In this document: piece by piece, positions 31,236-40,321 of the stretch
Numbering within the stretch: the first letter of the stretch is position 1
Layout: the number at the start of each line of letters is the position of its first letter
Assembly (NCBI GenBank): GCA_003695915.1
Contig: RFGF01000018.1
Span: 1 to 64,000, forward strand
Direction: 5' to 3'
DNA from: Nitrospirota bacterium
Lineage (GTDB): Bacteria; Nitrospirota; Nitrospiria; Nitrospirales; UBA8639
DNA: 64,000 nucleotides
Made by a program: the position numbers and the translations under genes
The notes under the pieces: model-generated
Told to the model about the DNA's origin: nothing
What the model saw: the letters and a program-made list of their open reading frames with translations, nothing else
Database searches by the model: none

Positions 31236-32165
31236 ATGGAACTACGTCAACTTCGCTATTTTCTCGCCGTGGCTCAACACAAGAACTTTACGCGCGCGGC
31301 GCAGGCCATTCACCTGTCGCAACCGTCCCTGTCCATTCAGATTCAGGCGCTCGAAGAAGAACTCGGCGCGCCGTTATTCCACCGCTTGGGACGCCAGGTA
31401 GCCTTAACCGAGGCCGGCATGGTTCTTTACGACTATGCCAGACGGGCCCTTCGCGATCTCGATCAAGCCAAAGACGCCATCCGCGAAATTAACGGGGCAG
31501 AACGAGGGCAATTGACCATCGGCGTCCTTTCCACGGTCAACACCTATCTGATCCCCCCTGTAGTAGCCCGGTTCCGTCACCAGTTTCCTCATCTCACGAT
31601 CCATATCTACGCTCAACCCTCGCGAGCGATTGAACAAGATCTGCTCGACAACCAACTTGATCTAGGCCTGTGTCTCCTTCCGACGTCGAGCCCGCGACTC
31701 ATTACCAAGCGGTTATTCAATGAAACCCTATGTCTTGTCGGACCTCCAACCGCTCGGCCGCTGGGAACCCGCGCCAAAATGAGCACTCTGGCCAACCTCC
31801 CGCTCGTCTTGATGCCCACAGATTATTGCTTGCGAAGCATGATCGAAACGTCGTGCGCGCATGTCGGAATTCGACCCAATGTTTCTATTGAAATGACAGC
31901 TCCCGAAGGGATTCTTGAAGTGGTCGCTCGAGGGGCCGGCTGGACAATTTTGCCGGAATTGTATGTCCGACACGCCAACAAAGGCATGAGCCTCCAGGTC
32001 GTCAGGCTCTACGATCCCGTTCCCCGCCATGCGGTGGGCTTCGCCTCCCTTGCCCATCGCTATCTTGGCCCATCAGCCCATGCCTTTATGGCTCTGTGCC
32101 ACACCGCACTCGAGGATATCCAGGCCAATCGAGACTTCCCGGCTGCCGAGAGTTGCGCCTCTTGA
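31236..32165 (+). CDS. LysR-family transcriptional regulator
   Basis: A 309-residue LTTR. The N-terminal winged helix (MELRQLRYFLAVAQHKNFTR, AAQAIHLSQPSLSIQIQALE, residues 1-60) binds DNA, and a periplasmic-binding-protein-like effector domain follows (about 90-295), with GQLTIGVLSTVNTYLIPPVV and WTILPELYV. It resembles CynR/CbbR/CysB-like LTTRs generally; effector cannot be predicted. It heads the same-strand series lysR-rrf2-sulfite reductase, so control of sulfur or nitrogen genes is plausible. The ATG directly follows an AT-rich promoter-like segment without an RBS. Confidence 0.9.
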   Translation: MELRQLRYFLAVAQHKNFTRAAQAIHLSQPSLSIQIQALEEELGAPLFHRLGRQVALTEAGMVLYDYARRALRDLDQAKDAIREINGAERGQLTIGVLSTVNTYLIPPVVARFRHQFPHLTIHIYAQPSRAIEQDLLDNQLDLGLCLLPTSSPRLITKRLFNETLCLVGPPTARPLGTRAKMSTLANLPLVLMPTDYCLRSMIETSCAHVGIRPNVSIEMTAPEGILEVVARGAGWTILPELYVRHANKGMSLQVVRLYDPVPRHAVGFASLAHRYLGPSAHAFMALCHTALEDIQANRDFPAAESCAS

Positions 32166-32192
32166 CGCCCGCCTCCGGCATTAGCTATGAAT

Positions 32193-32224
32193 TATTCCAA
32201 TCGGAATAGTAGGAATTTTAATTC
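32193..32224. promoter_or_regulatory. two adjacent palindromes upstream of rrf2-type gene
   Basis: TATTCC-AATC-GGAATA (32193-32208) is followed at once by GAATT-TT-AATTC (32213-32224). Paired short palindromes with GGAAT are reminiscent of binding sites of Rrf2-family repressors such as CymR, so autoregulation by the downstream gene is a reasonable guess. Confidence 0.4.
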
Positions 32225-32225
32225 T

Positions 32226-32257
32226 CGTTTATTGACACTTTCGTTTATTGACACTTT
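32226..32257 (+). repeat. perfect tandem duplication of 16 bases before the rrf2-type start codon
   Basis: CGTTTATTGACACTTT occurs twice in direct tandem (32226-32241, 32242-32257), ending two bases before the ATG. Each copy contains TTGACA, a consensus -35 hexamer. The duplication replaces the place where a ribosome-binding site would normally be. Confidence 0.8.
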
Positions 32258-32259
32258 CG

Positions 32260-32718
32260 ATGGCTCGCTTTCCCGTCAAGGTTAAATACGCCATTATGGG
32301 AGCCATTGAACTCGCAGCTCACTTTGGGAGTAACCCCATGCAAGCGAAACTCATCGCCCAACGTCAGGGCATCCCTCATCGATTCATCGAACACATTCTC
32401 CATGCAATGAAACAAGCCGGACTATTGACGAGCCATCGAGGGGCTCAGGGCGGGTATTCCCTCGCAAGACCCCCGGCGAGCATTTCCTTAGCCGATATTG
32501 TGCAGGCGGTCGGCGGCATTCATCAGGAGGCCGCTGCTCATCCCGCTCCCCTCAACGGGGAGTGGCAGCCACGAAACGTAATGGAAATCTTGTTGAGCGA
32601 GATTCAACAACAACTTCGGGAAGCTGAGCTCGAAATCCTTCGATCGATTTCCTTGCAAGCCTTGGTTGACAGATATCGCCAAGCCGAGGCGGTCGAAGCG
32701 TTGATGTTTCATATTTAA
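32260..32718 (+). CDS. Rrf2-family transcriptional regulator
   Basis: A 152-residue Rrf2 regulator. The winged helix (MARFPVKVKYAIMGAIELAA, QGIPHRFIEHILHAMKQAG, HRGAQGGYSLARPP) matches the family. The Cys triad that binds the Fe-S cluster in IscR, NsrR and RsrR is absent; there is no Cys in the product. It is therefore more like CymR, which senses sulfur status through protein partners. Its position just before a sulfite reductase/cys operon supports a role in sulfur control. The ATG at 32260 has no RBS; an in-frame TTG lies 12 bases upstream. Confidence 0.85.
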   Translation: MARFPVKVKYAIMGAIELAAHFGSNPMQAKLIAQRQGIPHRFIEHILHAMKQAGLLTSHRGAQGGYSLARPPASISLADIVQAVGGIHQEAAAHPAPLNGEWQPRNVMEILLSEIQQQLREAELEILRSISLQALVDRYRQAEAVEALMFHI

Positions 32719-32742
32719 TCACCGAATTTTTTTCGCCTGGCT

Positions 32743-32772
32743 TTGCGCAAGGCGCGCATACACGTCTATCAT
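32743..32772 (+). promoter_or_regulatory. candidate promoter of the sulfite reductase operon
   Basis: TTGCGC (32743-32748), an 18-base spacer and TATCAT (32767-32772) lie about 94 bases before the sulfite reductase start. The spacer contains GCGCAAGGCGCGC, a GC-rich imperfect palindrome. Prediction by eye. Confidence 0.3.
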
Positions 32773-32865
32773 GACAGATCTTGCACCGATGATAATTTTT
32801 CTGCGCCTCAGCTTCGATCCAAAGAGGAGGCATTCTGGAACAAGCCTTAGTCAGGAGGCATGGTT

Positions 32866-35373
32866 ATGAGCGCGTCACCCACGACACTTAAACCTCCCGT
32901 GCAGACGTTTCCTATCCCTCCAGAGATCATGGAAGAAATTGAAGCGTTCGAAGACGAGGTACAGCGTCTGCAAGCCGGCGATACAACAACGGAAATGTTC
33001 AAACCGTTTCGCTTGCAATACGGAATTTATGGGCAGCGCCAGGCCGATGTGCAAATGGTCCGCATCAAAATCCCATTCGGAGGGCTGACTGCCAATCAAC
33101 TCCGCCGCATTGCAGAAATCGCCGACACCTATGCAACTGGCGTCGGACATGTCACGACCCGACAAGATATTCAGCTTCACTTTGTGCCGCTGTCCCAAGT
33201 CGGAACGATCATGCGGCAATTGGCAGAAGTGGGCCTCACGACGCGGGAAGCCTGTGCAAACACCGTGCGCAACGTAACCGCCTGCTCGTTGGCCGGTGTT
33301 TGTCCGCGAGAGGTCTTCGACGTAACCCCTTATGCCAAGACCGTGGCGTATCACTTGCTTCGAAACCCGTTAAATCAAAGCCTTCCTCGGAAATTCAAAA
33401 TCGCCTTTTCCGGCTGCCAACATGATTGCGCATTGACGCCTATCCACGACATCGGGCTTGTCGCTGTACGCAATGCGCAGGGCGTCGGCGGATTCCGGAT
33501 GTCAGTTGGCGGGGGACTCGGCTCCACTCCCCGGCTGGCCAAGGTGCTTCGTGAGTTTGTTCCCATGGATGAATTGATTCCCTCGATCGAAGCCGTCATC
33601 AAAGTGTTCGACAACCTGGGGAACCGAAAAAACCGCAACAAAGCCCGGATGAAATTCGTCATCGACAAGCTGGGTTTCGAAGAATTTGCGCGCCGCTGGC
33701 AAGAAACCTTCAACGCCATTCAGGCTTCCAATGGGAAACGCCCGCTGGTCCTTTTGGACCATCCCGATACGCCGCCCTTAATCATGCCGGCAAAGGCTGG
33801 AAACGGGTCTTCTCAGGAATCAGAATCCGGTCTCGCCTCGAACGGGCACTCCACAGAGCCCAACGGCGCTGGATCAAGTTTCGATATATGGCGATGCACG
33901 AATGTCATCGCTCAACGACAAGCTGGCTTTGTCTCGGCCATCATCAAGTTGCCATCCGGCGACATCACAGCCGAACAAATGTGGATGCTCGCCGATTTGG
34001 CTGAGCGTCATGCTAACGGCAATCTGCGGACGACCATCAGCCAAAACATGATCATCAGATGGATCCCTGAAAACAATCTTCGTTCCTTCTATGCCGAATT
34101 AGCCTCTTGCGGGCTGGGAACCCCTGGAGCAGAAAGGATCGAAGACATCGTGGCCTGCCCTGGGACGGATACATGCGGGTTAGGGATCACCTCTTCCAAA
34201 GGGCTGGCGCGGGCACTGGCCGAGCTCTTTCCAGCCGGTCGGACACCCGAAGACTTGAAAGGGGTCAGCATTAAAATCAGCGGGTGTCATAATTCCTGCG
34301 CACAACATCATATTGCGACCATAGGTCTCCATGGAGTCGGCAAACGGATGGGCAATCATGTGGCCCCGGTATATGAACTCCATGTGGGGGGTCAGGTCAA
34401 CGGGACGACTCGCATCGGGCAGCTCGTGGTCAAAGTGCCAGCCAAACACGTGCCGGATGCCCTTCGCCATCTCTTGGCGTTCTACCGACAAAACCGACAG
34501 GAAGGCGAAACCCTGCACGCATTTTTCTCACGGGTGGGCAAAGCGGCAATCAAGGACGTGCTGATTCCGTATACGTTCCTTCCGTCTTTCGAGGACAACC
34601 CGGATGTCTATTATGATTGGGAAGCTGATGAAGAATTTACGGTCGAGGACCTCGGGCCTGGCGAATGTGCAGGCGGAGCATTGGAGATGATTGACAATCG
34701 TATGCTCGAAGCCGAACAAGAACTCTACCAAGCCCAAGTCTTAGCCAGAAAACATCAATATGCCATTGCCGTCAATAAGGCTTATCGATCCATCATAGCC
34801 GGTGCCAAGGCCTTGTTGGTTACAGAAGGCGTCGATCCTAATACGGATGAGGACACACTGACGGAGTTCGAACGCTTGATCGTTGCCAAAGGTGTTATCC
34901 CCACCGAATATCATCATTTGGCGCAACGAATTTCCAATCTCGGATCAAAGGACGCCTCCGAGACATTCGCCCAGGAGAAAATCGCGTTCGCTCGCAATTT
35001 CGTCGAGGTGTGCCGCTCGATCACTGAACGGATCGGACAGGACCTCAAGCTCTCTCCCGCAGAGACGAGCCTTCCAGCTCCGAATAAACCGGATAACGAT
35101 GAACGGGCGGCTGTTTCCCTACAACCTGAGGCCCCAGCAGCTCCGGTGTACGACCTGCGTGGCGTGATGTGTCCCATGAACTACGTCAAAACCAAACTCA
35201 AACTAGAAATGATGGATCCCGGCGACCGCCTGGAAGTGTGGCTCGATGCCGGCGATCCCATCAAGAACGTTCCAGTGAGCCTGCGTAACGATGGACACAA
35301 AATCTTGGTCCAGGAACCGTTGGACCCCCAACAGACTCACTTCAAAATTCTCGTCGAAAAAGTGGAGGCATGA
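32866..35373 (+). CDS. sulfite/nitrite reductase hemoprotein fused to helical and TusA-like domains
   Basis: An 835-residue siroheme/[4Fe-4S] reductase that would reduce sulfite to sulfide (or nitrite to ammonium) with six electrons, probably from ferredoxin. Two Nir/Sir half repeats span about 45-280 and 340-560. The C-terminal half has CPGTDTC (431-437) and GCHNSC (474-478); the N-terminal half also has C-x5-C (140-146) and C-x3-C (184-188). A HEPN-like helical domain follows (about 605-725) and then a TusA/SirA-type domain (about 760-835) with Cys769 in RGVMCPMNY. AGGAGG favours the ATG at 32866 over 32860. The APS-reductase and CysDN neighbours favour sulfite as substrate. Confidence 0.85.
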   Translation: MSASPTTLKPPVQTFPIPPEIMEEIEAFEDEVQRLQAGDTTTEMFKPFRLQYGIYGQRQADVQMVRIKIPFGGLTANQLRRIAEIADTYATGVGHVTTRQDIQLHFVPLSQVGTIMRQLAEVGLTTREACANTVRNVTACSLAGVCPREVFDVTPYAKTVAYHLLRNPLNQSLPRKFKIAFSGCQHDCALTPIHDIGLVAVRNAQGVGGFRMSVGGGLGSTPRLAKVLREFVPMDELIPSIEAVIKVFDNLGNRKNRNKARMKFVIDKLGFEEFARRWQETFNAIQASNGKRPLVLLDHPDTPPLIMPAKAGNGSSQESESGLASNGHSTEPNGAGSSFDIWRCTNVIAQRQAGFVSAIIKLPSGDITAEQMWMLADLAERHANGNLRTTISQNMIIRWIPENNLRSFYAELASCGLGTPGAERIEDIVACPGTDTCGLGITSSKGLARALAELFPAGRTPEDLKGVSIKISGCHNSCAQHHIATIGLHGVGKRMGNHVAPVYELHVGGQVNGTTRIGQLVVKVPAKHVPDALRHLLAFYRQNRQEGETLHAFFSRVGKAAIKDVLIPYTFLPSFEDNPDVYYDWEADEEFTVEDLGPGECAGGALEMIDNRMLEAEQELYQAQVLARKHQYAIAVNKAYRSIIAGAKALLVTEGVDPNTDEDTLTEFERLIVAKGVIPTEYHHLAQRISNLGSKDASETFAQEKIAFARNFVEVCRSITERIGQDLKLSPAETSLPAPNKPDNDERAAVSLQPEAPAAPVYDLRGVMCPMNYVKTKLKLEMMDPGDRLEVWLDAGDPIKNVPVSLRNDGHKILVQEPLDPQQTHFKILVEKVEA

Positions 35374-36110
35374 GTTGGATGGCGAACCCGATAAATGCTT
35401 CGACACCTGCGTCTCAACCTCCGCCGGACGCCCTTCCTGCCGTTAACGCCTCGCTGATCGACAAACCAGCCGAAGAGGTGCTGGCTTACGCGTTCGGTCA
35501 GTATTGGCCTTCCATCATTCTCGCGTGCAGTTTCGGGGCAGAAGACGTGGTGTTGCTCGATATGATGATGCGACTGAACCCGGAGGCGCAGCTCTTTTAC
35601 TTGGATACGGATTTTCTTTTTCCAGAAACCTACGAAGTCCGTGATCGGCTCATCGCTAAATATCGCTTGCGCCCCGAACAGATCATCCGCGTCAAACCCC
35701 AGCTCACGCCAGAAGAACAAGCTCGGCAATACGGCGATGCCCTCTGGGCCCGTGAACCGGACCTCTGCTGCCGACTCCGTAAGGTTGAACCGCTCGAACA
35801 GATGTTGAAGCCCTATGCCGCATGGATTACGGGCATTCGCCGGGAACAATCGCCCACGAGAGCGAATGCTGCGCTCATTGAATGGGATCGGCAATTCCAT
35901 TTGGTCAAAGTTAATCCTCTGGCCTATTGGTCATGGCACGACGTGTGGACCTATATCAAGGCTCATGATGTGCCGTACAACGTGCTGCACGATCGCAATT
36001 ATCCCAGCATCGGTTGCACGCATTGTACCGCGCCGGTCGCACCTGGCGACGATCCACGTTCCGGACGCTGGAAGCATTTTGCCAAAACCGAATGTGGACT
36101 ACACCGCTAG
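35370..36110 (+). CDS. cysH: adenylyl-sulfate (APS) reductase, [4Fe-4S] CysH type
   Basis: A 246-residue PAPS/APS reductase that forms sulfite from activated sulfate using thioredoxin. The phosphosulfate loop is SFGAEDVVLLDM, TGIRREQSPTRA binds sulfate, and the C-terminal KTECGLH holds the catalytic Cys. The Cys pairs CCRLRKVEPL and CTHC (about residues 132 and 216) are the [4Fe-4S] ligands found in enzymes using APS rather than PAPS. The first ATG overlaps the sulfite reductase stop (ATGA), but GGAGG is only one base away, so the ATG at 35379 may be the real start. Confidence 0.9.
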   Translation: MSWMANPINASTPASQPPPDALPAVNASLIDKPAEEVLAYAFGQYWPSIILACSFGAEDVVLLDMMMRLNPEAQLFYLDTDFLFPETYEVRDRLIAKYRLRPEQIIRVKPQLTPEEQARQYGDALWAREPDLCCRLRKVEPLEQMLKPYAAWITGIRREQSPTRANAALIEWDRQFHLVKVNPLAYWSWHDVWTYIKAHDVPYNVLHDRNYPSIGCTHCTAPVAPGDDPRSGRWKHFAKTECGLHR

Positions 36111-36180
36111 CGGCTGCGTGCCGTGCACTCATCCATGAGCTTGTCTTCATTGGTCATGCTCTGCTTGAAGGAGGCATCGG

Positions 36181-36594
36181 ATGAAAAAGTTGGCCGTTAT
36201 CGTCACTCGGAGTGGGTATAACAACGTGCTGCAAGCCTGTGAGTGGGCATCTCTCGCCGCTCAGGACGGGTGGACCGTGAGCCTCTTTTTTCGAGACGAA
36301 GCCGCAGCCCGGATGAGCCTCGCCAAATGCAAAGAGCTCACAATGAGCGAAGGCTATCGAGGCCGCGAAACTCGCGTACGGGAGTTGATCAAAAAAGACA
36401 ACAAGGCCGATTTCCCCGCCTTGCTGCAACAGCTGAAAGAGGCCGGAGACGTCAAAATCTCCGTTTGCCGCGAATCGATCAAGTATTTTGATTTGAACGT
36501 CGAGGACCTGATCCCGGAATTGGACGAAGTCCAACATGCCGAAGCCTTTTGGAAAGAAGAGGTGACGACAGCGGACCAGGTGTTGACGTTTTAG
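36181..36594 (+). CDS. DsrE/DsrF-like family protein
   Basis: A 137-residue DsrE-fold protein. It starts with the beta strand KKLAVIVTRSGYNN, continues with LQACEWASLAAQDGWTVSLFF, and has a Cys in ISVCRESIKYFDLNVEDLIP (part; about residue 98), the position of the active Cys in DsrE/TusD-type sulfur carriers. Two other Cys are present (about residues 20 and 50). A good AAGGAGG site precedes the ATG. Between cysH and cysD it probably handles persulfide sulfur, perhaps with the TusA-like domain of the reductase; this is inference. Confidence 0.8.
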   Translation: MKKLAVIVTRSGYNNVLQACEWASLAAQDGWTVSLFFRDEAAARMSLAKCKELTMSEGYRGRETRVRELIKKDNKADFPALLQQLKEAGDVKISVCRESIKYFDLNVEDLIPELDEVQHAEAFWKEEVTTADQVLTF

Positions 36595-36606
36595 GTTTCA
36601 TTTTTC

Positions 36607-37680
36607 ATGCAGCGATTCATCGCCAAAATTGGCAAGGGCCATAAAGGAGCCAAAGACTTAACGTGGGAAGAAGCTAAAGAGGCCATGAGCGCCTTGATCG
36701 AGGGAACTGCATCCCCTGTCCAAGTCGGCGCGTTCCTGATGGCCATGCGGATCAAGACGGAATCCATTTCTGAATTGGCGGCTTTTACAGCCACGGCCCG
36801 CCGTTATGTGCCGCCCATCCAAGCTCCCGCCGTTTCCCATCTCGTCGACCTCCCCTGCTATGGCGAGAAGCACGAAACCGTCCATGTCGTCGTCGCAGGT
36901 GCATTGCTTGCCGTGACAGCTGGCGCCAGGGTCCTGCTGCACAGTACCGACAATGCGGCGGCAGCATCCACGATCGCGGACGTGTTACGGGGACTGGGCA
37001 TCCCTACAGAACATCGCCCTGACGCTGCCGCTCAGACGTTGATGGAAACGGGCTTCGCCTATTTGGACCTGGCACTCTATCACCCTCCTCTTGCTCGTTT
37101 GTTGGATCTTCGTCAGGAATTAGGCCTTCAGAATCTGGCCCATCAAGTCGCCCGGATGATTAATCCCGTCCGCGCCCCGTCCCAACTGATCGGCGTGGGC
37201 CATCCGCCTTACGTGTCTAAAATCATCGAGGCGCTGCGCACGCTAGGAACATCCCGTGCGATCGTGTTTCAAGGGGTCGAAGGTTCGACAGAGCTTTCCA
37301 TTTCTGCTCCGACACCGGCCCATGAGCTTCGGCAGGATCGCGTTCTACCGCTCGTTCTGCGTCCGCACGATATCAACGCGAAACTTGGAACATTCCAGGC
37401 CATGAGCCCGGCGGATGGGCCATCGTCATCGCGAGCCGAACAGGAAGCGGCCTTTGTCAAAGGGGTACTCGCAAACCGGATACGAGGCGATCGCCGAGCG
37501 TGGGTCGTGTTCAACGCCGCCTTGATTCTCTATGCAGCCGGCGCAGCGTTATCGCTTCGGCATGCGACTCCATTGATTCAGGAAGCGTTGGACTCCGGAG
37601 CAGCGCTTCGCACGCTCCAGACCCTTTCTACGACCTCAGTCGACGATCGCGCACTCTTTCATCAAACGGTGACTGCATGA
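36607..37680 (+). CDS. TrpD2-like glycosyltransferase-fold protein with lost PRPP motifs
   Basis: A 357-residue relative of anthranilate phosphoribosyltransferase (TrpD) and of the YbiB/TrpD2 group, with the N-terminal helical domain ([21 protein letters not shown], part) and the alpha/beta domain. Active TrpD has GTGGD and KHGNR signatures; here the corresponding parts read [14 protein letters not shown] and [14 protein letters not shown], so PRPP binding is probably lost or altered. [17 protein letters not shown] is conserved. It cannot be a tryptophan enzyme by context: it sits in a sulfate-assimilation operon and overlaps cysD by 4 bases. No RBS is evident. Confidence 0.8.
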
Positions 37681-38477
37681 AACACTTACGTCAACTTGAG
37701 GACCAAAGCGTCTATATTCTTCGAGAGGCCTATAAACATTTCGATCATCTGGCCATGCTGTGGTCCATGGGAAAAGATTCCACAGTATTGCTCTGGCTCG
37801 CACGAAAAGCCTTTTTTGGTCACGTACCTTTTCCACTCATCCACATCGACACAAGTTATAAGATTCCGGAAATGATCGAATATCGAGATCGCCTGGCTCG
37901 AGAATGGCGACTCAACCTGGTGATCGGGCAGAACCAAGAAGCGTTGGCCCAGGGGATGAACTACACCAAGGGCCGAGTGGAATGTTGTACCGCACTCAAG
38001 ACCCAGGCGCTCAAACAGGTCATGGAAGAAAAAGGTTATACTGGGTTGATCCTGGGCGTACGGGCCGACGAAGAGGGGACGCGAGCCAAGGAACGATATT
38101 TTTCTCCACGTGATAAAAACAGTGAGTGGGATTTTCGCGATCAACCTCCGGAATTGTGGGATCAATATAAGACGACATTCCCCCCGGGAACGCACATCCG
38201 CATCCATCCCCTGCTGGATTGGACAGAGATCAACATTTGGGAATACATCAAATTGGAGAACATCCCGTTTCTCGAATCGCTGTATTTGGATCAGGGCAGT
38301 GGAACCCGATATCGGAGCCTGGGATGTGCTCCCTGCACCTTCCCGATTCAATCCACGGCGAAAACGGTGGACGACATCATTGCCGAACTGCGTCAGTCGA
38401 ACATCGCGGAACGAGCCGGGCGCGCGCAAGACGCCGGACGCGGCATGGAACTCCTGCGAAAAGAAGGCTATATGTAA
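37677..38477 (+). CDS. cysD: sulfate adenylyltransferase subunit 2
   Basis: CysD (266 residues) is the catalytic ATP-pyrophosphatase-fold subunit that makes APS from ATP and sulfate. The PP-loop reads [17 protein letters not shown] (about residues 31-47), and [18 protein letters not shown] and [10 protein letters not shown] are typical CysD segments. The start is the ATG at 37677, overlapping the stop of the TrpD2-like gene as ATGA. It is followed by cysN with a one-base overlap (TAATG). Confidence 0.93.
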
Positions 38478-40321
38478 TGGCTCAGCAAGCGCAGCACCCG
38501 TCCCCTGTTCACGAGCAAATGAATATTGTGATCGTCGGTCATGTCGACCATGGCAAATCGACGTTGCTGGGTCGACTCTATGCCGACACGGGATCGCTTC
38601 CCGAAGGCAAACTGGAAAAGATTCAAGCGATTTGCCGACAACAAGGGAAAGAATTCGAGTATGCCTTCCTCTTTGATGCTTTTCTCGAAGAACAACAGCA
38701 AGGGATCACCATCGATACGGCTCGAACTTTTTTCACTTGGGAAGGCCGTCAATACATCATCATCGATGCTCCTGGACACAAAGAGTTTTTGAAAAACATG
38801 GTCTCCGGTGCCGCTCGGGCAGAAGCGGCGCTGCTCGTCATTGACGCGTTTGAAGGGGTGAAGGATCAATCCAAACGGCACGGACTCTTGTTATCTATGC
38901 TCGGCGTCAAGCAGGTCGCCGTCGTCGTCAACAAAATGGATTTGGTCCGATATCGTGAAGATGTCTTTCGGGGCATCGAAAAAGAGTACGGGGAATTCCT
39001 CGCCCAATTGAACATCACACCTACCTATGTCATTCCGGCAAGCGCCAAGGAAGGCGTCAACATTACGCGCGCAGCTTCTCAAATGCCCTGGTATCAGGGA
39101 CCGACTGTTCTGGACTCGCTTGCCCGATTCCAACGTCAGACTGCTCGAGAGGATCAACCGCTTCGCTTCCCCATTCAGGATGTGTACAAATTCGACGCCA
39201 GACGGATTCTCGTCGGTCGCTTGACGGCTGGCAAATTAACGGTTGGAGACCGCTTGGTCTTTTCGCCATCCAACAAGTCTGCGCATATCCAAACCATCGA
39301 AGCCTTCAATGTCGATCCGCCACCGATGCACGCTGTTGCCGGTCAATCCGTTGGCATCACATTGGACGAACAGATTTTCGTCGAACGGGGGCAGATTGCG
39401 ACTCACCCTGAAAGCGTTCCGCTCGTCTCCACGAGCTTTCGCGCACACGTCTTTTGGTTGGGCCAGCGCCCGCTCGAAATGAAGCGACCGTACCTGCTTC
39501 GTCTGACGACACGAGAAACGCCGTGTGAAGTCATCGAAATTCATCGAATCGTGGATGCCAATAATCTTGACGACCACACGACCCGTGCACTCGTCCACCG
39601 CAATGAAGTCGCCGATGTGACCCTCAAAACCAAGTGGCCTATCGCATTCGATCTCTATGCCGACTTCGAGGCGACGGGACGATTTGTGCTCGTCGACCAA
39701 TATGACGTGTCGGGTGGCGGGATCATTACCGCGTTCGTCCATGACGAACAAGAAGAACTCCGACACGAAGCTCGCATGCGCGAGTCAACCTGGATTACCG
39801 GCAACGTCGGCCCGGAAGAACGGGCACAACATTATGGGCATCGGGCTGCCGTCGTGTTATTCACTGGTCCGGATGCGGCTGCCAAAGCATTTTTGGCCAA
39901 GAAATTGGAATCCGTTCTCGTGGCTGAGGGCCGACATGCCTATCTTTTAGATCCTCTGAACCTTCGTCGAGGATTGGACTCGGATTTGGGCGACACCGAC
40001 ACCCATGAAACGGTACGACGGTTCGGAGAAGTCGTCCGGCTCTTGGCGGACACGGGTCTCCTGATCATCACAAGCACAAATGCATTCTCATCGACCGCCG
40101 ACCATGTGGTCCAAGCCATTCATACATTAGTCGATCCCGTTCCCGTCATCACGATTTATATGACCAAGTCGTCTGAACGGCTTCAGCCGGATGCGGATCT
40201 CGTGTTCGCAGGTCCGGAAGACTTTGACGAGCGGGTGCACGAGATTCTCGCCTTTCTCAAACGCAAGGGTATTCTTGCAGATCCGCTCGGCCTGCGCCCG
40301 AGCTTTCAGTTTTCCATCTGA
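38477..40321 (+). CDS. cysN: sulfate adenylyltransferase subunit 1 with degenerate APS-kinase-like domain
   Basis: A 614-residue CysN whose GTPase drives APS synthesis by CysD. G motifs are GHVDHGKST (21-29), DAPGHKEFLKNM and VNKMD; the EF-Tu-like beta barrels follow. The C-terminal 159 residues (about 456-614, from 39842) resemble APS kinase CysC (LNLRRGLDSDLG, FGEVVRLLADTGLLII) but the P-loop GxxGxGKST is replaced by FTGPDAAAKAF, and LDGDN by LDPLN. This domain therefore probably makes no PAPS, in agreement with the APS-type CysH in the same operon. Last gene of the operon. Confidence 0.9.
   Translation: MAQQAQHPSPVHEQMNIVIVGHVDHGKSTLLGRLYADTGSLPEGKLEKIQAICRQQGKEFEYAFLFDAFLEEQQQGITIDTARTFFTWEGRQYIIIDAPGHKEFLKNMVSGAARAEAALLVIDAFEGVKDQSKRHGLLLSMLGVKQVAVVVNKMDLVRYREDVFRGIEKEYGEFLAQLNITPTYVIPASAKEGVNITRAASQMPWYQGPTVLDSLARFQRQTAREDQPLRFPIQDVYKFDARRILVGRLTAGKLTVGDRLVFSPSNKSAHIQTIEAFNVDPPPMHAVAGQSVGITLDEQIFVERGQIATHPESVPLVSTSFRAHVFWLGQRPLEMKRPYLLRLTTRETPCEVIEIHRIVDANNLDDHTTRALVHRNEVADVTLKTKWPIAFDLYADFEATGRFVLVDQYDVSGGGIITAFVHDEQEELRHEARMRESTWITGNVGPEERAQHYGHRAAVVLFTGPDAAAKAFLAKKLESVLVAEGRHAYLLDPLNLRRGLDSDLGDTDTHETVRRFGEVVRLLADTGLLIITSTNAFSSTADHVVQAIHTLVDPVPVITIYMTKSSERLQPDADLVFAGPEDFDERVHEILAFLKRKGILADPLGLRPSFQFSI

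What the first reader, a model, noticed from the sequence alone, without database searches (positions are those of the whole stretch)
32866..40321. PAPS-free sulfate assimilation operon with built-in sulfur-carrier parts and two apparently disabled enzyme folds
Seen: six same-strand genes, several overlapping by 1-4 bases, encode a sulfite reductase ending in a TusA-like domain, a 4Fe-4S CysH, a DsrE-like protein, a TrpD-fold protein without PRPP motifs, CysD, and CysN with an APS-kinase fold lacking its P-loop. Known: 4Fe-4S CysH enzymes use APS, so no APS kinase is needed. Inference: the TusA-like and DsrE-like parts could take sulfur from the reductase as persulfide instead of releasing free sulfide, and the two inactive folds may be structural or regulatory. 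I know of no description of this combination as one system.
Basis: partly seen in the sequence, partly recalled or inferred. Interest (0 to 1): 0.78.

Follow-up and report, generated by a model that had tools for sequence, protein, structure and literature searches.

The report
Sulfite reductase fused to sulfur carrier
Nitrospira-type bacteria turn sulfate into usable sulfur with an operon whose sulfite reductase carries its own tethered sulfur-carrier protein, which suggests the sulfur is handed on bound to protein rather than released as free sulfide, and this can be tested directly.

Summary
The six genes are real, run on one strand, overlap as described, and form a conserved Nitrospirales operon (62 fetched loci carry all five core genes in the same order). 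The TusA cysteine is invariant in 110 of 110 Nitrospirales proteins. Elsewhere in the phylum the fused reductase sits with AprAB and Sat, in one case with two TusA domains and three DsrE/DsrH-like genes; in three genomes TusA is the next gene instead of fused. Corrections: the organism is not PAPS-free (two intact APS kinases elsewhere); the P-loop loss is local (48 of 58 relatives keep it) while the APS-kinase lid motif is absent in all; DsrE is optional (15 of 101 loci); TrpD2 is a known family. Best reading: the tethered TusA takes sulfane sulfur from the reductase as persulfide. This is inferred, not shown, but a 2026 report that assimilatory sulfite reductases make zero-valent sulfur makes it directly testable.

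The parts
32162..32191 (+). promoter-like TTGACG-N18-TATGAA in front of the Rrf2 gene
   Evidence: read from the sequence; the consensus scan did not list it; many relatives have CTTGACA at this place (64 of 105 carry CTTGACAG)
32193..32216 (+). operator-like inverted repeat TATTCC-AATC-GGAATA followed by GTAGGAAT
   Evidence: ATTCC-N4-GGAAT upstream of Rrf2 in 47 of 105 loci against 0.05 in shuffles; near-identical 24-mers in AprAB-type operons elsewhere in the phylum; the only perfect match in the own genome
32260..32718 (+). Rrf2-family regulator without cysteines, nearest curated model CymR
   Evidence: PF02082 1.4e-27, CymR 67 bits against IscR 61; upstream of the reductase in nearly all Nitrospirales loci
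32860..35373 (+). siroheme sulfite reductase with C-terminal HEPN and TusA domains (start at 32860 or 32866)
   Evidence: AlphaFold model mean pLDDT 80 matches NirA, maize SiR, E. coli SiR, TusA and a HEPN protein
33283..33429 (+). extra first-half cysteine set C142-X5-C148 ... C186-X3-C190
   Evidence: 110 of 110 Nitrospirales; absent in Thermus, Bacteroidota and Proteobacteria homologues and lost in L114
34156..34299 (+). canonical siroheme-4Fe-4S cysteines C433, C439, C476, C480
   Evidence: invariant in 110 of 110 and in all 22 diverse homologues
34666..34668 (+). Cys603 in the flexible GPGECAG linker
   Evidence: 110 of 110; also in Thermus (C-terminal GRGECA) and Bacteroidota; residues 597-606 have pLDDT under 50
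34678..35046 (+). HEPN-type helical domain (aa 607-729)
   Evidence: PF05168 1.7e-5; fold match 2hsb, TM 0.80 by target length
35140..35361 (+). TusA domain (aa 761-834), active cysteine C771 in CPMN, on a disordered tether of about 30 residues
   Evidence: PF01206 2e-16; C771 110 of 110; fold match to TusA 3lvj_C, TM 0.81 by target length; tether 728-759 pLDDT under 50
35370..36110 (+). CysH, 4Fe-4S APS reductase
   Evidence: CC...CxxC and ECGLH in the sequence
36181..36594 (+). DsrE-family protein, Cys20 and Cys96 conserved
   Evidence: PF02635 and PF13686; both cysteines 15 of 15; present in 15 of 101 loci
36607..37680 (+). TrpD2/YbiB-type protein without PRPP motifs
37677..38477 (+). CysD, ATP sulfurylase small subunit
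   Evidence: about 83-89% identity in most relatives
38477..40321 (+). CysN, ATP sulfurylase GTPase subunit
   Evidence: TIGR02034 over its cut-off
39782..40318 (+). C-terminal APS-kinase-like pseudo-domain of CysN
   Evidence: APS kinase fold; lid motif FTG[IV]D absent in 58 of 58, P-loop kept in 48 of 58 but lost here

Best explanation
This is the standard sulfate-assimilation operon of Nitrospirales, under an Rrf2 (CymR-like) regulator, probably a repressor. CysD/CysN make APS, the 4Fe-4S CysH reduces APS to sulfite, and a ferredoxin-type siroheme reductase reduces the sulfite. The reductase carries a sulfur carrier (TusA) on a flexible tether behind a helical HEPN domain. The sulfur most likely leaves the siroheme at the sulfane (S0) level, is caught on cysteine (C771 of TusA, possibly via C603 of the GECAG linker) and is passed on as protein persulfide, to DsrE where present and otherwise straight to acceptors. 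One possible acceptor, inferred only, is a separate conserved cluster (CysK, two MoeB/ThiF, CysO-like ThiS, NIL, JAB protease) that resembles the thiocarboxylate cysteine pathway. The CysN pseudo-kinase is probably a structural or allosteric domain, as in fungal ATP sulfurylase. Shown: anatomy, conservation, gene linkage, operator-like motif. Inferred: persulfide chemistry, the roles of C603, HEPN and TrpD2, and the downstream acceptor.
For: Fusion across the class and further families of the phylum; TusA separate but next gene in L127-L129; tandem TusA and a DsrH/TusB-like, DsrE, DsrE trio beside the reductase, AprAB and Sat in L116; C771 and C603 invariant; flexible tether; conserved operon order; operator-like motif shared between CysH-type and AprAB-type operons; CysK/CysO-like/JAB cluster in the own genome, its CysO-like carrier in 54 of 58 Nitrospirales genomes; published finding that assimilatory sulfite reductases release zero-valent sulfur first (PMC13188885).
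Against: No biochemistry. A canonical CysK is present, so a free-sulfide route is open. Thermus and Bacteroidota homologues have the reductase without TusA, so TusA is not needed for sulfite reduction as such. DsrE is missing in most relatives. The 2026 zero-valent sulfur claim used hemin-supplemented assays and I found no independent confirmation. TusA has CPxN, not the usual CPxP.
Confidence: 0.5

Rival explanations
1. The TusA domain works inward: it brings sulfane sulfur or a thiosulfonate (from thiosulfate, through DsrE) to the reductase, so the enzyme can use thiosulfate as well as sulfite.
For: TusA/DsrE homologues carry thiosulfate in Metallosphaera (Liu 2014, cited in PMC10504309); the TusA relative YeeD works on thiosulfate (PMC11073785) and is a fold match; L116 has three DsrE-type genes beside the reductase.
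Against: The operon makes sulfite from sulfate (APS enzymes throughout); no YeeE-type importer or rhodanese in the operon.
Confidence: 0.22
2. The reductase makes ordinary free sulfide for CysK; the TusA domain serves a separate function (tRNA thiolation, molybdenum or thiamine sulfur) or only structure and regulation.
For: CysK present; the reductase core exists without TusA in other phyla; two further TusA proteins in the genome.
Against: Fusion or adjacency kept across class-level groups with an invariant cysteine; free TusA copies already exist for other duties.
Confidence: 0.23
3. The pathway is dissimilatory or a sulfite-detoxifying system rather than assimilatory.
For: AprAB and Sat in distant operons.
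Against: No dsrA model over its cut-off in 18 genomes with this reductase; CysH/CysDN in Nitrospirales; CymR-like regulator.
Confidence: 0.05

Closest known systems
Assimilatory APS-reductase pathway (4Fe-4S CysH with CysDN and ferredoxin sulfite reductase)
   Same: same three steps, motifs and gene types
   Different: reductase fused to HEPN and TusA; DsrE and TrpD2 in the operon; CysN ends in a pseudo-APS-kinase
DsrAB/DsrC dissimilatory sulfite reductase
   Same: reductase paired with a cysteine carrier that takes the product sulfur (inferred here)
   Different: carrier is a covalently tethered TusA, not DsrC; single-chain assimilatory-type enzyme; no DsrAB in the genomes tested
TusA-TusBCD/DsrEFH relay
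   Same: TusA and DsrE-type partners, a DsrH/DsrE/DsrE set in L116
   Different: attached to a sulfite reductase instead of being fed by a cysteine desulfurase or rhodanese; CPxN motif
SiR-HEPN of Bacteroidota (Aureibacter, Persicobacter)
   Same: reductase, GECAG linker and HEPN-like region
   Different: no TusA, no first-half cysteine set
Fungal ATP sulfurylase with inactive APS-kinase-like domain
   Same: ATP sulfurylase carrying a dead kinase fold (own knowledge; 1m8p is among the fold matches)
   Different: fused to the CysN GTPase type, not to Sat; ligand unknown
CysO-CysM-Mec thiocarboxylate cysteine pathway of Mycobacterium (own knowledge)
   Same: ThiS-like carrier ending GGG, MoeB-type enzymes, JAB protease and a cysteine synthase in one cluster
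   Different: at another locus; link to the reductase is inferred

Membership tests
4Fe-4S APS reductase (CysH) | CC and CxxC cluster motif plus C-terminal ECGLH | tested here: met
   present; above cut-off for TIGR00434 and PRK02090, 234.1 against 235.3 for TIGR02055, well below for PAPS_reductase TIGR02057
Assimilatory siroheme sulfite/nitrite reductase | C-X5-C ... C-X3-C in the second half and Arg/Lys substrate residues in the first half | tested here: met
   C433/439/476/480 and R101, R137, R177, K178, K180 invariant
Assimilatory siroheme sulfite/nitrite reductase | score over a curated equivalog cut-off (CysI, Sir, NirA) | tested here: not met
   all below cut-off: an outlying subfamily; so filed as a reductase of this fold, not as CysI or NirA
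TusA | TusA fold with active cysteine in a CPxP motif | tested here: inconclusive
   fold and Cys-Pro met; second proline replaced by Asn in all 110
DsrE family | DsrE fold with conserved acceptor cysteine | tested here: met
   (Cys96 aligns with a cysteine of 2qs7)
TrpD2/YbiB | TrpD fold without PRPP motifs | tested here: met
TrpD2/YbiB | nucleic-acid binding | not testable with these tools
   YbiB binds nucleic acid (PMC10123104); YbiB model cut-off not reached
APS kinase (CysC) | P-loop and FTGIDxPYE-type lid | tested here: not met
   lid absent in 58 of 58, P-loop lost here
Dsr dissimilatory pathway | DsrAB | tested here: not met
   no dsrA over cut-off in 18 genomes
CymR-type Rrf2 regulator | curated CymR cut-off | tested here: not met
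   67 bits against 195; Rrf2 superfamily cut-off met

The most novel reading that the evidence does not exclude
A sulfite reductase with two iron-sulfur sites in one chain whose product never leaves as free sulfide: sulfane sulfur goes from siroheme through a linker cysteine to a tethered TusA, then by persulfide relay into a thiocarboxylate cysteine pathway, giving protein-bound sulfur all the way from sulfite to cysteine.
Probability: 0.2. Interest if true: 0.85.

Novelty: new variant of a known kind. Interest (0 to 1): 0.62.

Why it matters
Whether assimilatory sulfite reductase yields sulfide or zero-valent sulfur is now disputed (PMC13188885). An enzyme that nature has tied to a sulfane-sulfur carrier offers a direct test. 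Nitrospira-type bacteria are major nitrifiers, and I found no description of this arrangement in the open-access literature searched. The two-site reductase is of interest for how single-chain reductases arose from a symmetric ancestor.

Tried and rejected
'PAPS-free organism': rejected, two intact APS kinases. 'P-loop loss as a defining trait': rejected, 48 of 58 relatives keep it. 'DsrE as an essential part': rejected, 15 of 101 loci, and only 16 of 58 genomes have any match, about half of them weak. Dissimilatory reading: no DsrAB. A second functional siroheme site from the first-half cysteines: left open; by inspection the matching second-half residues for sulfite binding (equivalents of R137, K178, K180) are not there, so a structural cluster is likelier. 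Second operator match in the genome (C100) lies inside an open frame with no obvious sulfur gene nearby, so no wider regulon was found; a strict pattern scan of 58 genomes hit only 4, because the spacer varies between groups. No Rfam match in the window. An SP[YF]R motif test was uninformative, since the genome's own intact kinases also lack that exact string. Literature searches for a TusA-sulfite reductase fusion in Nitrospira found nothing. Distribution outside Nitrospirota could be sampled only in plasmid records. No coordinates are returned for models, so cysteine distances were not measured.

Full report
Observation. The window lies in a Nitrospirota genome (G000, contig C45). The six genes exist as described, with 4-, 4- and 1-base overlaps. 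Domain searches confirm every assignment and add a HEPN domain between reductase and TusA. A cysteine-free Rrf2 regulator gene lies 140 bases upstream on the same strand and accompanies the reductase in nearly all relatives, so the unit is best taken as 32260-40321.

Conservation. A protein search of 198 genomes of the phylum found full-length or near-full-length fused reductases throughout the Nitrospirales and in further families. In fetched Nitrospirales loci the order Rrf2, SiR-HEPN-TusA, CysH, (DsrE), TrpD2, CysD, CysN is constant; 62 loci hold all five core genes, 60 of them with Rrf2. DsrE lies between CysH and TrpD2 in 15 of 101 loci; in the rest these two genes are separated by 6-163 bases.

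Reductase. In 110 Nitrospirales proteins the canonical cysteines 433, 439, 476, 480, a second set 142, 148, 186, 190 in the first half with nearly the same spacing, Cys603 in GPGECAG and the TusA cysteine 771 are all invariant. The first-half set is absent in Thermus, Bacteroidota and proteobacterial homologues and in tobacco nitrite reductase, and lost in L114. Cys603 is also present in Thermus, whose protein ends in GRGECA, and in Bacteroidota. The AlphaFold model gives a reductase core, a low-confidence linker around Cys603, a helical bundle, a disordered tether (728-759) and a TusA fold; Foldseek matches NirA, plant and E. coli sulfite reductases, HEPN 2hsb and TusA 3lvj.

Distant forms. 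In families outside the order the fused reductase follows AprA and AprB and precedes Sat (L114, L120). L116 has Rrf2, a TauE-like membrane protein, AprA, AprB, SiR-HEPN-TusA-TusA, a DsrH/TusB-like gene, two DsrE genes and Sat. In L127-L129 TusA is a separate gene straight after the reductase. None of 18 genomes tested has DsrA over its cut-off. The constant element is therefore reductase plus TusA, whatever enzyme makes the sulfite.

Regulation. An inverted repeat ATTCC-N4-GGAAT lies just in front of Rrf2 in 47 of 105 loci against 0.05 expected in shuffles. These loci are related, so the count is not an independent test; but the window's 24-mer TATTCCAATCGGAATAGTAGGAAT differs by few bases from AATTCCTATCGGAATAGTAGGATT of the AprAB-type operons. 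In the own genome it is the only perfect match. A repressor site at the promoter is the natural reading.

Pseudo-kinase and TrpD2. The CysN tail has the APS kinase fold but lacks the FTGI lid in all 58 proteins compared, whereas both free APS kinases of the genome have an intact P-loop, an ISPY or ITPY motif and an FTGI lid. The P-loop is lost in the window and nine others. The TrpD-fold protein has conserved but altered PRPP-site residues and resembles TrpD2/YbiB; a true TrpD is on contig C19.

Mechanism. TusA carries sulfane sulfur, so its tethering to a sulfite reductase suggests a product caught as persulfide, as DsrC does for DsrAB. A 2026 study reports that four assimilatory sulfite reductases release zero-valent sulfur first and that cysteine synthases accept it (PMC13188885); it does not mention TusA. 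The genome also has, at another locus, CysK, two MoeB/ThiF proteins, threonine synthase, a ThiS-like carrier, a NIL protein and a JAB protease; the carrier is in 54 of 58 Nitrospirales genomes, and in 15 relatives checked it lies between threonine synthase and NIL/MoeB/JAB. This resembles the CysO/Mec cysteine pathway (own knowledge) and could accept carrier-bound sulfur; that link is inference. I put the outward relay at 0.5, thiosulfate delivery inward at 0.22, plain sulfide production with an unrelated TusA role at 0.23.

Verdict. Real, conserved, and under-described; a new variant of assimilatory sulfate reduction rather than a new kind of system.

Noticed in passing
L114 2210-9460; L116 reverse strand; L120 4956-11343: Operons of Rrf2, AprA, AprB, fused reductase-HEPN-TusA and Sat in Nitrospirota genomes without DsrAB: candidates for AprAB used in assimilation, a point left open in PMC10504309.
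   Followed up: partly
L167 5490-10456 (own genome C86): Cluster of CysK, two MoeB/ThiF, threonine synthase, ThiS-like carrier ending GGG, NIL and JAB protease, conserved in Nitrospirales; looks like thiocarboxylate-dependent cysteine or methionine synthesis.
   Followed up: partly
window 33283-33429: Second full cysteine set in the first half of the reductase, nearly the spacing of the canonical set: a possible two-cluster single-chain sulfite reductase.
   Followed up: partly
L152 232-513 (own genome C121): Free-standing TusA with the same CPxN signature as the fused domain (CPYNFVKTK).
   Followed up: no
L150 8198-11467 (own genome C37): Intact APS kinase gene near a sulfotransferase-like gene and glycan-type genes: PAPS is probably used for sulfation.
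   Followed up: partly
window 32226-32259: Tandem direct repeat (TCGTTTATTGACACTT) between operator and Rrf2 start, not seen in the relatives printed.
   Followed up: no
L124, L125, L126 upstream of the reductase: Operator-like sequence (CCGATCGAAATAGTA type) directly before the reductase where no Rrf2 gene is adjacent.
   Followed up: no
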